This document shows positions 24,500 to 29,444 of a stretch of DNA of 64,000 bases, in pieces (positions within the stretch are counted from its first letter, which is position 1; each line of letters starts with the position of its first letter). The stretch is from Deltaproteobacteria bacterium HGW-Deltaproteobacteria-8 (GTDB lineage Bacteria; Desulfobacterota; Desulfovibrionia; Desulfovibrionales; Desulfovibrionaceae): assembly GCA_002840405.1 (NCBI GenBank), contig PHAR01000001.1:138384-202383 (forward strand). The letters are read 5' to 3'. Below the pieces are notes generated by a model. The model was not told the DNA's origin. It was given only the letters and a program-made list of their open reading frames with translations, and made no database searches. Both the position numbers and the translations under genes were made by a program.

Positions 24500-25619
24500 A
24501 TGCTGCAATTCGCCGATCTCAAGACCCTGGGCCTGGCCCTGCTGGAACAATACGCATCCCTCTGGGGGCGCCTTTGACTATGACGAGTCAAGCGAACGCC
24601 TGCGGGAGATCGAGAGCCTGCTCTCCAAGCCCGGCGCCTGGGACAAGCCTGAGCTTCTGACCCCTGTCCTGCGCGAGAAGAGCGCCCGGGAGTTCCGCCT
24701 GAACGCCTACGATGCCCTGGCCCAGGCCAAGGCCGATGTGGACGACTGCCTGGTGCTGGCACAGGAAGACCAGAGCCAGGAGGCCCTGGAGGCCCTGGAG
24801 GAGTATCTGGGCACCTTCCAGCTCCAGTTGGGCGAGACCGAGCTGTCCATCCTGCTCTCCGGCCCGGACGACGACAGCGCCGCCATCCTGGAGATCCACC
24901 CCGGCGCTGGCGGCGTCGACGCCCAGGACTGGGCCGAGATGCTGCTGCGCATGTACCTGCGCTGGGCCGAGTCACGCGGCTTTCAGGTGGTCGAGCTGGA
25001 CCGGCTCTACGGCGACGAGGCGGGCATCAAGAGCGTCACCCTGCAGATCACCGGACCCTACGCCTTTGGCCTGCTCAAGGGCGAGGCTGGCATCCACAGG
25101 CTGATCCGCATCTCGCCTTTTGACTCCTCGGGCCGCAGGCATACGGCCTTCGCCTCGGTGGACGTGTACCCGGACATCGACACGAACATCGAAATCGACG
25201 TCAAGGAGGAGGACCTGCGCATCGACGTGTTCCGCGCCAGCGGCCCCGGCGGCCAGCACGTGAACCGCACCAACTCCGCCGTGCGCATCACCCACAACCC
25301 TTCGGGCATCGTGGTCCAGTGCCAGAACGAGAAATCCCAGCTCAAGAACAAACAGCACGCCATGAAGGTCTTGAAGGCCCGGCTGTACGAACGCGAACTC
25401 AAGGAGCTGGAGGCCGGCAAGAAGGCCGACTACGCCAGCAAGGACGCCATCGCCTTTGGCAGCCAGATCCGCACCTACACCCTGCAGCCCTACCGGCAGG
25501 TCAAGGACCACCGCTCCGGGCATGAGAACAGCAACGTGGACGCCGTGCTCGACGGCCGCCTGGACGAATTCCTGCGCGCAACCCTGCTCTTCAGCCATGC
25601 CGAAAAGAAATCCGCATAA
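24500..25619 (+). CDS. prfB: Peptide chain release factor 2 (programmed +1 frameshift)
   Basis: RF2 reads UGA and UAA stops. The first 25 codons (24500-24574) end at an in-frame TGA (24575-24577); the rest continues in the +1 frame from 24576 to 25619, giving 372 residues when joined. The slip site CTT-TGA-C with an upstream GGGGG has the same spacing as in E. coli prfB. The peptide anticodon region reads RISPFDSSGRRHTAF (SPF, stop recognition) and the catalytic loop FRASGPGGQHVNRTNS (GGQ). The ribosome site ahead of ATG 24500 is weak. The next gene overlaps the 3' end by 23 nt. Confidence 0.95.
24563..24578 (+). promoter_or_regulatory. Programmed +1 frameshift site of prfB
   Basis: The sequence TGGGGGCGCCTTTGAC contains an internal Shine-Dalgarno-like GGGGG (24564-24568), 3 nt before the CTT slip codon (24572-24574) and the TGA stop followed by C. 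Low RF2 stalls the ribosome at TGA and favours the shift, so RF2 controls its own level. Confidence 0.92.
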
Positions 25620-27370: not shown

Positions 27371-27646
27371 ATGAACAAGAGCGAGCTCATCAAGGCGCTG
27401 GCTGAAGAGAAAAAGCTGCACGTTGACGATGCCACCAAAATCGTTGGAGCATTCTTCGATTCCATCAAGGACGCCCTCGTCGCGGGCGACCGGGTCGAAG
27501 TGCGCGGATTCGGCAGCTTCAAGGTCAAGGACTACAACGGCTATACGGGCCGCAATCCCAAGACCGGAACCGTGGTTCAGGTTCAGCCCAAACGTCTGCC
27601 CTTCTTCCGTCCGGGCAAGGAACTCAAGGAATTCATCAACGACTGA
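27371..27646 (+). CDS. HU/IHF family DNA-binding protein (second copy)
   Basis: A 91-residue DNA-bending protein with the family block VEVRGFGSFKVKDYNGYTGRN and the arm RNPKTGTVVQVQPKRLPFF. The pattern is closer to IHF-beta than the hup product at 15642. ATG 27371 has GGAG 5 nt upstream; the frame extends further 5' without a family match. Its stop is one base before the ATG of the selenoprotein gene, so that gene is probably translated by coupling. Confidence 0.93.
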   Translation: MNKSELIKALAEEKKLHVDDATKIVGAFFDSIKDALVAGDRVEVRGFGSFKVKDYNGYTGRNPKTGTVVQVQPKRLPFFRPGKELKEFIND

Positions 27647-27647
27647 C

Positions 27648-28532
27648 ATGCTGCGCACCATCACGCTTCTGCTGTTTGCGGTTCTGGCCTTCGCGTCCAA
27701 TGTGTACGCGGGTTCGACCAAGCTCACCCTGCTCTTCAGCGGCAACACCGAGGCCGAGGTACGCCCCTGCCCCTCTTGAGGGGGCAAGACCGTAGGCGGA
27801 CTGGCCCGGCGGGCCACGTTTCAGAATGCGCTTCGCCAGAGCGCACCAAAGGGGGCTCCGGTACTCGTCCTGACCGGGGCCTATGATTTTGCCCAATACC
27901 AGGCGCAGAAGCCGCCCACGCGCAAGCGCCTCGAGTTCATGGCCAGGGCTTTTGACCTCCTGCGCAATGACCTGGTCTTCGTTTCACCCTATGAGCGCGC
28001 CGTCATGGCCAAGGCAGGAGTGCACCCGCACAGAAGCTGGCGGGGCTCGGAGCACCTGGAACAGCTTGTGCTCGGGCCGGATGCCGAGCATCGCATCGGC
28101 GTGCTCTTGCTTCCGCCGCTGCCCGATGGCGCCACCAGCCTGCCCCCGGATCTGGTACGCCAGGTCGAGGGCGCGGTGCGCTCCCTGCGCTCCAAAACGC
28201 GCCTTGTGGTGGCCATGAGCCCCTGGGGCTACAAGCGCGAGCAGGAACTGCTCAGCGCCCCTGGCCCCCTGCCGGACCTGCTGCTGGGCTCCGGCCTCGG
28301 CATCGGACTGGTGGGCAACATTGAAGCCAAGGGCAAGACCCTGTGGGTACGCGCCTTTGCCCAAGGCAAATCCATGAGCCGCATCGACATTCTGGCCTGG
28401 CCGGATCATGCGAACATCAATTTCAAATGGACGGAAGCGCAAAATATTCGTATGACCCTTTTCGGGTTGACGGATCAGTACCAGGAAGATTCGCACATGC
28501 TCTCGCTCATGCAAAGCCTGGGTACGGACTAG
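27648..28532 (+). CDS. UshA-like secreted selenoprotein with in-frame UGA (Sec44)
   Basis: The frame runs 294 residues if the TGA at 27777-27779 is read as selenocysteine. A signal peptide (1-21, ending SNVYA) leads into TKLTLLFSGNTEAEVRPCPS-Sec-GG, and the frame then stays open with strong G/C codon bias to 28532. The Sec pairs with Cys41 as a CxxU redox motif. Cysteine relatives of this UshA/metallophosphatase-like type carry a CxxC there; the metal ligands of active phosphatases (Asp and His of GDTHG) are replaced (GNTEA), so it is probably not a phosphatase. A SECIS-like hairpin follows the UGA. I recall a curated family named UshA-like (seleno)protein, not checked. A simple split or pseudogene is the alternative. 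Confidence 0.82.
27777..27817 (+). promoter_or_regulatory. UGA-Sec codon and SECIS-like hairpin
   Basis: UGA at 27777-27779 is followed by a hairpin at 27802-27816: TGGCCC pairs with GGGCCA around a GGC loop. The loop begins 31 nt after the UGA, within the range of bacterial SECIS elements, and has G at its first two positions, as SelB recognition usually needs. Confidence 0.65.
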
Positions 28533-28565: not shown

Positions 28566-29444
28566 ATGCAGCTGCGCGGCGCGTTTACCGCACTGGTGAC
28601 GCCGTTCAAGAACGGCGCCGTGGACGAGGAGGCATACAGGGCCTTCATCGAATGGCAGATCGAACAGGGAATCAACGGCTTGGTGCCCTGCGGCACCACC
28701 GGCGAGGCCGCGACCCTTTCCCACGCGGAACAGGGCCAGGTCATCCGCATCTGTGTCGATCAGGTCAAGGGTCGGGTTCCGGTCATCGCCGGGGCGGGCT
28801 CCAACAACACCATGGAAGCCATTGAGCTGACCGCAATGGCCAAAAAGGCCGGAGCCGACGCCGCGCTCATCATCACCCCCTACTACAACAAACCAACGCC
28901 GGACGGCCTGGTGGCGCACTTCAAGGCCATCGCCAACGAGGCGTCCATGCCCTTCATCCTGTACAACGTTCCCGGCCGCACGGGCCAGAACGTGCTGCCG
29001 AAGACCATCGCCCGCATCGCCAAAGAGGTGCCTGAGGTCATCGGCTGCAAGGAGGCCACGGGCGATGTCAGGCAGGGCTCCGAGGTCTGCGAGTTTTTGG
29101 GCAAGGACTTCATTGTCCTGTCCGGTGACGACTTCACGGTGCTGCCCCTGCTCACGGTCGGCGGCAACGGCACCATCTCGGTGACCTCAAACGTCATGCC
29201 CGCCAAAATGTCCGGCATGATCGACGCCTTCTTCAAGCGCGACATTGCCCGCGCCCAGGCTCTGCACATGGAGATGAACCCCGTGAACCGGGCCATGTTC
29301 CTTGAGGTCAACCCCATCCCCGTGAAGACCGCCCTGCACCTCATGGGCAAGATGGCTTTGGAGTTCAGGCTGCCCCTGGTGCCCATGGAGCCCGCCAACC
29401 TGGCCAAGCTCAAGGACACGCTGAAGGCCAGCGGCCTGATTTAG
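28566..29444 (+). CDS. dapA: 4-hydroxy-tetrahydrodipicolinate synthase
   Basis: A 292-residue aldolase that joins pyruvate and aspartate semialdehyde at the entry to lysine and diaminopimelate synthesis. The Schiff-base Lys162 is in IGCKEATGD, the catalytic Tyr134 in ILYNVPGRTG and the signature GTTGEAATL lies near residue 43. AGGAGGAAG precedes the ATG. It follows the selenoprotein gene by 33 nt and is closed by a strong terminator. dapB lies elsewhere (49315). Confidence 0.96.
   Translation: MQLRGAFTALVTPFKNGAVDEEAYRAFIEWQIEQGINGLVPCGTTGEAATLSHAEQGQVIRICVDQVKGRVPVIAGAGSNNTMEAIELTAMAKKAGADAALIITPYYNKPTPDGLVAHFKAIANEASMPFILYNVPGRTGQNVLPKTIARIAKEVPEVIGCKEATGDVRQGSEVCEFLGKDFIVLSGDDFTVLPLLTVGGNGTISVTSNVMPAKMSGMIDAFFKRDIARAQALHMEMNPVNRAMFLEVNPIPVKTALHLMGKMALEFRLPLVPMEPANLAKLKDTLKASGLI

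What the first reader, a model, noticed from the sequence alone, without database searches (positions are those of the whole stretch)
27648..28532. UshA-like secreted protein with an in-frame UGA read as selenocysteine
A single TGA (27777) interrupts an otherwise open 294-codon frame. G/C third-position bias is the same on both sides, a signal peptide precedes it, and the context is Cys-Pro-Ser-UGA-Gly-Gly, i.e. a CxxU redox motif. A hairpin TGGCCC/GGGCCA with a GGC loop starts 25 nt after the UGA, fitting a bacterial SECIS. The metal ligands expected in UshA-like phosphatases are changed (GNTEA for GDTHG), so the protein may be a periplasmic selenoredox protein rather than a phosphatase. It sits between an IHF-like gene and dapA, an unexplained grouping. 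Standard gene calling would split it or start it at 27939.
Basis: partly seen in the sequence, partly recalled or inferred. Interest (0 to 1): 0.85.

Follow-up and report, generated by a model that had tools for sequence, protein, structure and literature searches.

The report
Known-family secreted selenoprotein gene, function unknown
The in-frame stop is very probably read as the rare amino acid selenocysteine in a secreted bacterial protein, but this protein family is already catalogued, so the site is a well-supported ordinary member whose job is still unknown.

Summary
The read-through protein matches NCBIfam NF049981 'UshA-like (seleno)protein family 2' (294 bits, cut-off 140), listed with motif CxxU in a 2026 review (PMC13188914). 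The genome has selA, selB, selD and tRNA-Sec. In 149 gene copies from 125 genomes of the same family, the residue is UGA in 121 and a Cys codon in 28. A 6-bp hairpin, mostly with a GGC or GGA loop, keeps at least five pairs in 109 of 119 distinct Sec genes and 6 of 27 distinct Cys genes, with compensatory third-base changes. Genomes with only Cys copies mostly lack selA (7 of 10, against 9 of 115 Sec-bearing). The protein resembles a 5'-nucleotidase/SoxB-type domain without its metal ligands, so a periplasmic CxxU redox protein is the likeliest function; that step is inference. The 'unexplained grouping' behind an HU/IHF gene is conserved: 77 of 88 loci. Added here: SECIS covariation, HU linkage, Cys+Sec tandem pairs.

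The parts
27648..28532 (+). UshA-like selenoprotein family 2 gene, 294 aa with Sec at residue 44, stop TAG
   Evidence: NF049981 7.1e-88, 294.4 bits, cut-off 140
27648..27710 (+). signal-peptide-like N-terminus (21 residues, AYA before Gly-22)
   Evidence: read; a hydrophobic 12-mer was found upstream of the motif in 136 of 149 copies; cleavage site by eye, not by a predictor
27768..27779 (+). CPSU motif (Cys-41, Sec-44)
   Evidence: Cys-41 and Cys/Sec-44 invariant in 51 of 51 aligned members (UGA read as C)
27777..27779 (+). UGA codon read as selenocysteine
   Evidence: 121 TGA, 27 TGC, 1 TGT in 149 copies
27802..27816 (+). bacterial SECIS hairpin, 6 bp, loop GGC
27371..27646 (+). HU/IHF-family DNA-binding protein gene; one base lies between its stop and the selenoprotein start codon
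   Evidence: PF00216 9.4e-32; IHF-beta model 101 bits, below its cut-off 115; conserved neighbour
28566..29444 (+). dapA, 4-hydroxy-tetrahydrodipicolinate synthase
   Evidence: TIGR00674 347 bits, cut-off 206; within 200 nt downstream in 45 of 87 loci

Best explanation
A selenoprotein gene of the catalogued family 'UshA-like (seleno)protein family 2' (NF049981); the confidence given is for this. Supported by comparison: UGA 27777-27779 encodes selenocysteine, with a SECIS hairpin at 27802-27816 that SelB would recognise while tRNA-Sec is delivered; the genome carries the whole machinery. Likely: the protein is exported by its signal peptide and folds as a UshA/5'-nucleotidase/SoxB-type domain that has lost its metal ligands. 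Inferred (about 0.55): the Cys-41/Sec-44 pair, placed just after the first strand where active relatives carry metal ligands, cycles between thiol/selenol and a selenenylsulfide, so the protein is a periplasmic redox protein or reductase; metal or metalloid binding by the same pair is the main alternative (about 0.25). It is probably made from the same message as an HU/IHF-like protein (one base apart; inference), for reasons unknown.
For: Family match well over the curated cut-off; 51 of 51 aligned members match the same model at E 0.001 or better. 149 copies: 121 UGA, 28 Cys codons. selA, selB, selD, tRNA-Sec, all over cut-off (tRNA-SeC also by ARAGORN). At least five contiguous stem pairs in 109 of 119 distinct Sec genes against 6 of 27 Cys genes, Fisher 6.6e-13, not corrected for kinship. 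Stem pairs average 5.52 of 6 against 2.01 in synonymous recodings, for Cys genes 2.55 against 1.80. The third bases of codons +8 and +12, which face each other in the stem, pair in 118 of 119 Sec genes with six pair types, and in 16 of 27 Cys genes. On 81 Sec sequences four of five covariation measures exceed all 500 shuffles, the fifth (pairs changed on both sides, 2) is reached by 9 of 500, and slid versions pair in 31-55% against 96.9%. Of genomes with only Cys copies 7 of 10 lack selA, of Sec-bearing genomes 9 of 115 (at least 90% complete: 4 of 6 against 2 of 95). Metal ligands replaced in alignments to solved enzymes.
Against: No experiment shows selenium in the protein. On the tree the Sec/Cys label needs only 5 changes (3 forced by starred branches; one lies where two long branches meet and may be false), so the Fisher values overstate independence; the kinship-aware test has at most 3 independent pairs on supported branches and cannot reach significance, though the differences seen all go the expected way. 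Shuffles as can be exceeded by related sequences without structure (tool's own note). Taken one gene at a time, only 8 of 79 Sec genes and 0 of 22 Cys genes reach p 0.05 for the stem, and the window's gene does not. The energy of 54 nt from the codon on does not separate Sec from Cys genes (p 0.098), and in this window the longer stretch prefers another fold. Nine Sec-bearing genomes lack a selA match, two of them rated 96% and 93% complete but in 220 and 820 contigs; 3 of 10 Cys-only genomes have selA. The UshA-type fold rests on weak profile matches (E 0.006 to 0.025) and an hhalign match to one sequence with probability 22.5%; the structure prediction failed, pLDDT 35.5. The redox function has no direct evidence.
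Confidence: 0.93

Rival explanations
1. The CxxU pair is a metal or metalloid (or selenite/sulphane-sulphur) binding site rather than a redox couple, so the protein is a periplasmic binding or detoxification protein on a dead phosphatase scaffold. (A rival on function only; it shares the Sec reading.)
For: Soft ligands in a CPxU motif; no other invariant Cys among 51 aligned members, and 51 of 149 copies have no other Cys at all in the matched stretch; the UshA-type fold is a metal-binding fold (recalled).
Against: Nothing decisive. Sec is replaced by Cys with Cys-41 kept, which fits both readings; the review's authors expect most uncharacterised selenoproteins, many with UxxC or CxxU, to serve redox functions (PMC13188914, passage seen).
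Confidence: 0.25
2. The protein keeps a hydrolase activity (nucleotidase or SoxB-like sulphur-ester hydrolysis) with the Cys/Sec pair standing in for the lost metal ligands. (A rival on function only.)
For: Weak profile similarity to 5'-nucleotidases and SoxB; 2 of 51 members match the SoxB model, best 5.9e-06.
Against: The alignments put Asn, Tyr, Pro and Pro where the solved enzymes have Asp, Asp, His and His (that these are the ligands is recalled); no Pfam phosphatase model matches any of 51 members at E 0.01.
Confidence: 0.12
3. A pseudogene or a sequencing error: UGA is a true stop and the downstream ORF from 27939 is a separate or dead gene.
For: A standard ORF finder ends the frame at 27779 and restarts at ATG 27939.
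Against: 121 of 149 copies keep UGA at the same codon with the reading frame kept on both sides, down to 25% identity with the window protein; the substitute is always Cys.
Confidence: 0.01
4. UGA is read through as Trp or by near-cognate suppression, without selenium.
For: None found; UGA reassignment is known in other bacteria (recalled).
Against: The only replacement seen is Cys, never Trp; the hairpin is kept in UGA genes; UGA loss tends to go with selA loss; prfB, whose product ends translation at UGA, matches its model over the cut-off in the window.
Confidence: 0.01

Closest known systems
UshA-like (seleno)protein family 2, NCBIfam NF049981
   Same: Match of residues 26-289 to profile 1-262 of 262, 294 bits against a cut-off of 140; CxxU motif as in the review's Table 1.
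   Different: Nothing tested sets this gene apart from the family.
UshA-like (seleno)protein family 1, NCBIfam NF041198 (COG0737, CxU), reported from ocean metagenomes in PMC2398784 (passages seen)
   Same: Distant similarity, best stretch residues 5-96 including the Cys/Sec loop, 1.1e-11.
   Different: 44 bits against a cut-off of 275; CxU instead of CxxU; profile of 519 positions against 262 for family 2.
UshA, 5'-nucleotidases and SoxB (metallophosphatase fold)
   Same: Weak profile alignments along strand 1, the GGLARR stretch, SPWG and SGPG motifs; hhalign to E. coli UshA 24-290 with 32-353.
   Different: Recognisable metal ligands absent in the alignments; 294 aa against 550 for E. coli UshA; carries CxxU.

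Membership tests
NCBIfam NF049981 UshA-like (seleno)protein family 2 | whole-protein score over the curated cut-off of 140 bits | tested here: met
   294.4 bits
NCBIfam NF049981 UshA-like (seleno)protein family 2 | CxxU (or CxxC) motif | tested here: met
   CPSU; CxxU as listed in PMC13188914 Table 1
bacterial selenoprotein gene | UGA aligned with Cys in homologues | tested here: met
   28 of 149 copies have a Cys codon there, 121 UGA
bacterial selenoprotein gene | selA, selB, selD and tRNA-Sec in the genome | tested here: met
   582, 381, 323 and 81 bits, all over cut-off; ARAGORN tRNA-SeC, anticodon tca
bacterial SECIS model (constraints quoted in PMC13188914) | 3-9 nt loop, 4-16 bp stem, G in first two loop positions, 16-37 nt from UGA to loop, energy at most -7.5 kcal/mol | tested here: met
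   3 nt GGC, 6 bp, 28 nt, -9.5 kcal/mol for the hairpin alone; it is not the best fold of the longer 46-nt stretch
bacterial selenoprotein | selenium present in the protein | not testable with these tools
   needs mass spectrometry or 75Se labelling
NCBIfam NF041198 UshA-like family 1 | score over the curated cut-off of 275 bits | tested here: not met
   44.1 bits
UshA/5'-nucleotidase metallophosphatase (active enzyme) | conserved Asp/His/Asn metal ligands | tested here: not met
   replaced in weak alignments with 2z1a and SoxB; which residues are ligands is recalled
UshA/5'-nucleotidase metallophosphatase | four-layer alpha/beta fold | tested here: inconclusive
   profile hits E 0.0059-0.025, hhalign probability 22.5, structure model pLDDT 35.5

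The most novel reading that the evidence does not exclude
The HU/IHF-like gene and the selenoprotein form one functional unit, and the Cys and Sec paralogues that stand in tandem in one genus work as a pair: a periplasmic redox sensor or reductase for sulphur species, built on a dead SoxB-type scaffold, whose synthesis is coupled to a nucleoid protein.
Probability: 0.07. Interest if true: 0.6.

Novelty: new member of a known kind. Interest (0 to 1): 0.3.

Why it matters
It confirms a selenoprotein that ordinary gene calling would cut short, and gives the catalogued but uncharacterised family what I did not find in the papers searched: a SECIS element supported by compensatory third-base changes, several switches between Sec and Cys that tend to go with loss of selA, a conserved HU/IHF-gene linkage, and Cys+Sec tandem pairs. 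These make the family a convenient test case for why bacteria keep Sec rather than Cys, and give a first handle on function. It does not open a new kind of system.

Tried and rejected
Pseudogene, sequencing error and Trp read-through were considered and rejected. Local folding of 54 nt from the codon on against synonymous recodings did not separate Sec from Cys genes (mean z -0.50 against -0.14, p 0.098): other pairings dominate the energy, so the specific hairpin was counted instead. That hairpin's register was read from the window gene, so the counts test a structure fixed beforehand on one of the sequences, and control (b) leans to it for that reason. The AlphaFold model from three close sequences was useless (pLDDT 35.5), and no fold search was run on it. 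Pfam gave no family for the window protein and one irrelevant match among 51 members. A single-sequence PDB search gave only a chance hit. The Rfam scan of the window at gathering scores gave nothing. A first synteny count used the HU gene in a wrong frame; it is discarded and replaced. One search read minus-strand loci on the wrong strand and was redone.

Rows dropped before counts: two noise domain hits (-2.0 and 0.2 bits) before the count of 104 copies; L171 (genome G159, cut by the contig end) lacks the motif region. Of 132 genomes with a match, 125 gave a readable residue; the other 7 are G159 and six whose matches fell below the printed list. Further copies of multi-copy genomes that fell below that list were not read. 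The synteny counts use the 90 loci L014-L043 and L055-L114; the 46 loci fetched later have short flanks and were left out. The 36 genomes without selA are the 20 printed and 16 found by elimination from its list of 163 with a match.

Hairpin exceptions among the 119 distinct Sec genes: 10. Six (L079, L080, L085, L086, L088, L092) can form a different register with a GG-containing loop; one search prints that fold for five of them, L092 has the same letters there as L085. L178 has the hairpin displaced by a two-codon insertion. Three (L089, L153, L156) have one internal mismatch.

Paper searches with nothing on this family: 28 papers hold the terms, 10 listed, judged by title; none.

Full report
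What is there. The window frame 27648-28532 is open for 294 residues but for one TGA at 27777-27779. It starts with a signal-peptide-like segment, has Cys-Pro-Ser-UGA-Gly-Gly at residues 41-46, and ends with TAG. One base separates its start codon from the stop of an HU/IHF-family gene (27371-27646; PF00216), and dapA follows at 28566.

It is a known family. Read through, the protein matches NCBIfam NF049981.1, 'UshA-like (seleno)protein family 2', with 294.4 bits against a curated cut-off of 140, over the whole profile. Family 1 (NF041198) matches best over residues 5-96 only, far below its cut-off. Table 1 of a 2026 review (PMC13188914; abstract, passages and section 5 seen) lists 'UshA-like selenoprotein family 2, NF049981, CxxU, WP_420705249.1', marked as GenBank annotated. 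It was the only paper naming NF049981 in the library searched. Family 1 was reported as 'COG0737, UshA-like, CxU' in ocean metagenomes (PMC2398784, passages seen) and is listed in an earlier review (PMC9312934, passage seen). So the finding is not a new selenoprotein family.

Machinery. The window's own genome (3.51 Mb, 13 contigs) has selA (582 bits), selB (381 bits), selD (323 bits, with one in-frame TGA of its own) and tRNA-Sec (81 bits; ARAGORN tRNA-SeC, anticodon tca). Relatives named by record are Humidesulfovibrio sp., a Desulfovibrionales bin and an uncultured delta proteobacterium bin.

Relatives. 132 of 199 genomes of the same family carry a match. I read 149 copies from 125 of these genomes: 104 and 45. 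The residue at the site is TGA in 121, TGC in 27 and TGT in 1. Of 51 members aligned, Cys-41 and the Cys/Sec at 44 are invariant, with G50, G51, R54, R55, P156, G216 and G240. On a tree of 104 copies with the site masked, Sec and Cys change place at least 5 times (3 forced by starred branches; quick method; one change lies where two long branches meet, L113 with L072). In one genus 14 loci from 13 genomes carry a Cys copy and a Sec copy in tandem (L055-L066, L073, L074).

SECIS. In the stem 27802-27807 / 27811-27816 with loop GGC, at least five contiguous pairs from the loop are kept in 72 of 79 distinct Sec genes and 6 of 22 Cys genes of the first set, and in 109 of 119 and 6 of 27 of the whole set. 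Both groups encode nearly the same GGLARR peptide, so much of the difference is in silent sites. Observed stem length averages 5.52 pairs against 2.01 in synonymous recodings for Sec genes, 2.55 against 1.80 for Cys genes. The third bases of the codons 8 and 12 places after the UGA face each other in the stem; they pair in 118 of 119 Sec genes, as G-C 88, G-U 21, U-G 4, U-A 3, A-U 1, C-G 1, and in 16 of 27 Cys genes. Most of these changes are silent (Leu CTG/CTT, Ala GCC/GCT/GCG/GCA), a few are not. On 81 Sec sequences the covariation score, the percentage paired, the cells changed on both sides and the pair types exceed all 500 shuffles, the number of pairs changed on both sides (2) is reached by 9 of 500, and sliding the partner by 1-3 bases drops pairing from 96.9% to 31-55%. 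The hairpin meets the review's bacterial SECIS constraints. Caveats: one gene at a time only 8 of 79 Sec genes reach p 0.05 and the window's does not (p 0.135), the longer stretch prefers another fold, the total folding energy does not tell Sec from Cys genes, and the sequences are related, so with at most 3 independent pairs on supported branches the kinship-aware test cannot reach significance.

Loss with selA. Among the 125 genomes, 9 of 115 Sec-bearing ones lack a selA match, against 7 of 10 with Cys copies only; among genomes at least 90% complete, 2 of 95 against 4 of 6 (Fisher 1.4e-5 and 5e-5, not corrected for kinship). The two well-rated exceptions, G174 and G124, are assemblies of 220 and 820 contigs. 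The three Cys-only genomes with selA belong to one genus.

Fold and function. A profile of 51 members finds two venom 5'-nucleotidases, a bacterial 5'-nucleotidase (2z1a) and SoxB at E 0.006-0.025, and hhalign lines it up with E. coli UshA over nearly its whole length, weakly. In these alignments NDTHA of 2z1a lies on (A/G)NTxG, DAGDVF on AGAYEF, LSHLG on LSPWG, and SGHTH of SoxB on SGPGV; that these hold the metal ligands is recalled knowledge of the fold. The Cys/Sec loop follows strand 1, beside the place of the first ligand pair. An active metal-dependent phosphatase is therefore unlikely, and a periplasmic thiol/selenol protein is the best reading. A hydrophobic segment was found before the motif in 136 of 149 copies. 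The AlphaFold model was too poor to use.

Context. An HU/IHF-family gene lies on the same strand within 150 nt upstream of the matched domain in 77 of 88 loci with at least 400 nt of upstream flank, dapA within 200 nt downstream in 45 of 87 loci with at least 1000 nt of downstream flank, both in 44 of 85. Second, diverged copies in five genomes (L103, L104, L108, L111, L112) have no HU gene in the flank held (L108 has only 176 nt).

Range. In 297 genomes of the phylum, 122 match NF049981 at E 0.001 or better, but only 4 exceed the cut-off, all from the window's own family; the many weak matches with one TGA are probably other UshA-like selenoproteins (not followed up). None of the 59 nearest genomes searched has a family 1 protein over the cut-off.

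Verdict.

Noticed in passing
window 24500-25619, shift site 24572-24578: prfB (release factor 2) looks as if it has the classic programmed +1 frameshift: the short ORF from ATG 24500 ends in CTT TGA C (codon 26 is UGA) and the body continues in the +1 frame. The window would then hold two recoded UGA codons 3.2 kb apart; that the site is the classic one is recalled.
   Followed up: partly
L011 1501-2427 (own genome, selD): The genome's selD itself has an in-frame TGA in its N-terminal part (context AAGUAAK), so it is probably a Sec-containing selenophosphate synthetase.
   Followed up: partly
L055-L066, L073, L074: Tandem pair of paralogues in one genus, one with CPxC and one with CPxU; the 14 Cys copies form one starred clade and the 14 Sec copies another, so the pair seems older than the split of these species.
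   Followed up: partly
L103, L104, L108, L111, L112: A second, diverged family 2 gene, UGA-bearing, in four genomes of the same genus and one of another genus, with no HU gene in the flank held; the window's genome has a single match.
   Followed up: no
phylum-wide genomes: Many weak NF049981 matches with exactly one TGA inside open frames, often of 300-600 codons: probably other UshA-like selenoproteins (family 1 or uncatalogued) below the cut-off.
   Followed up: no
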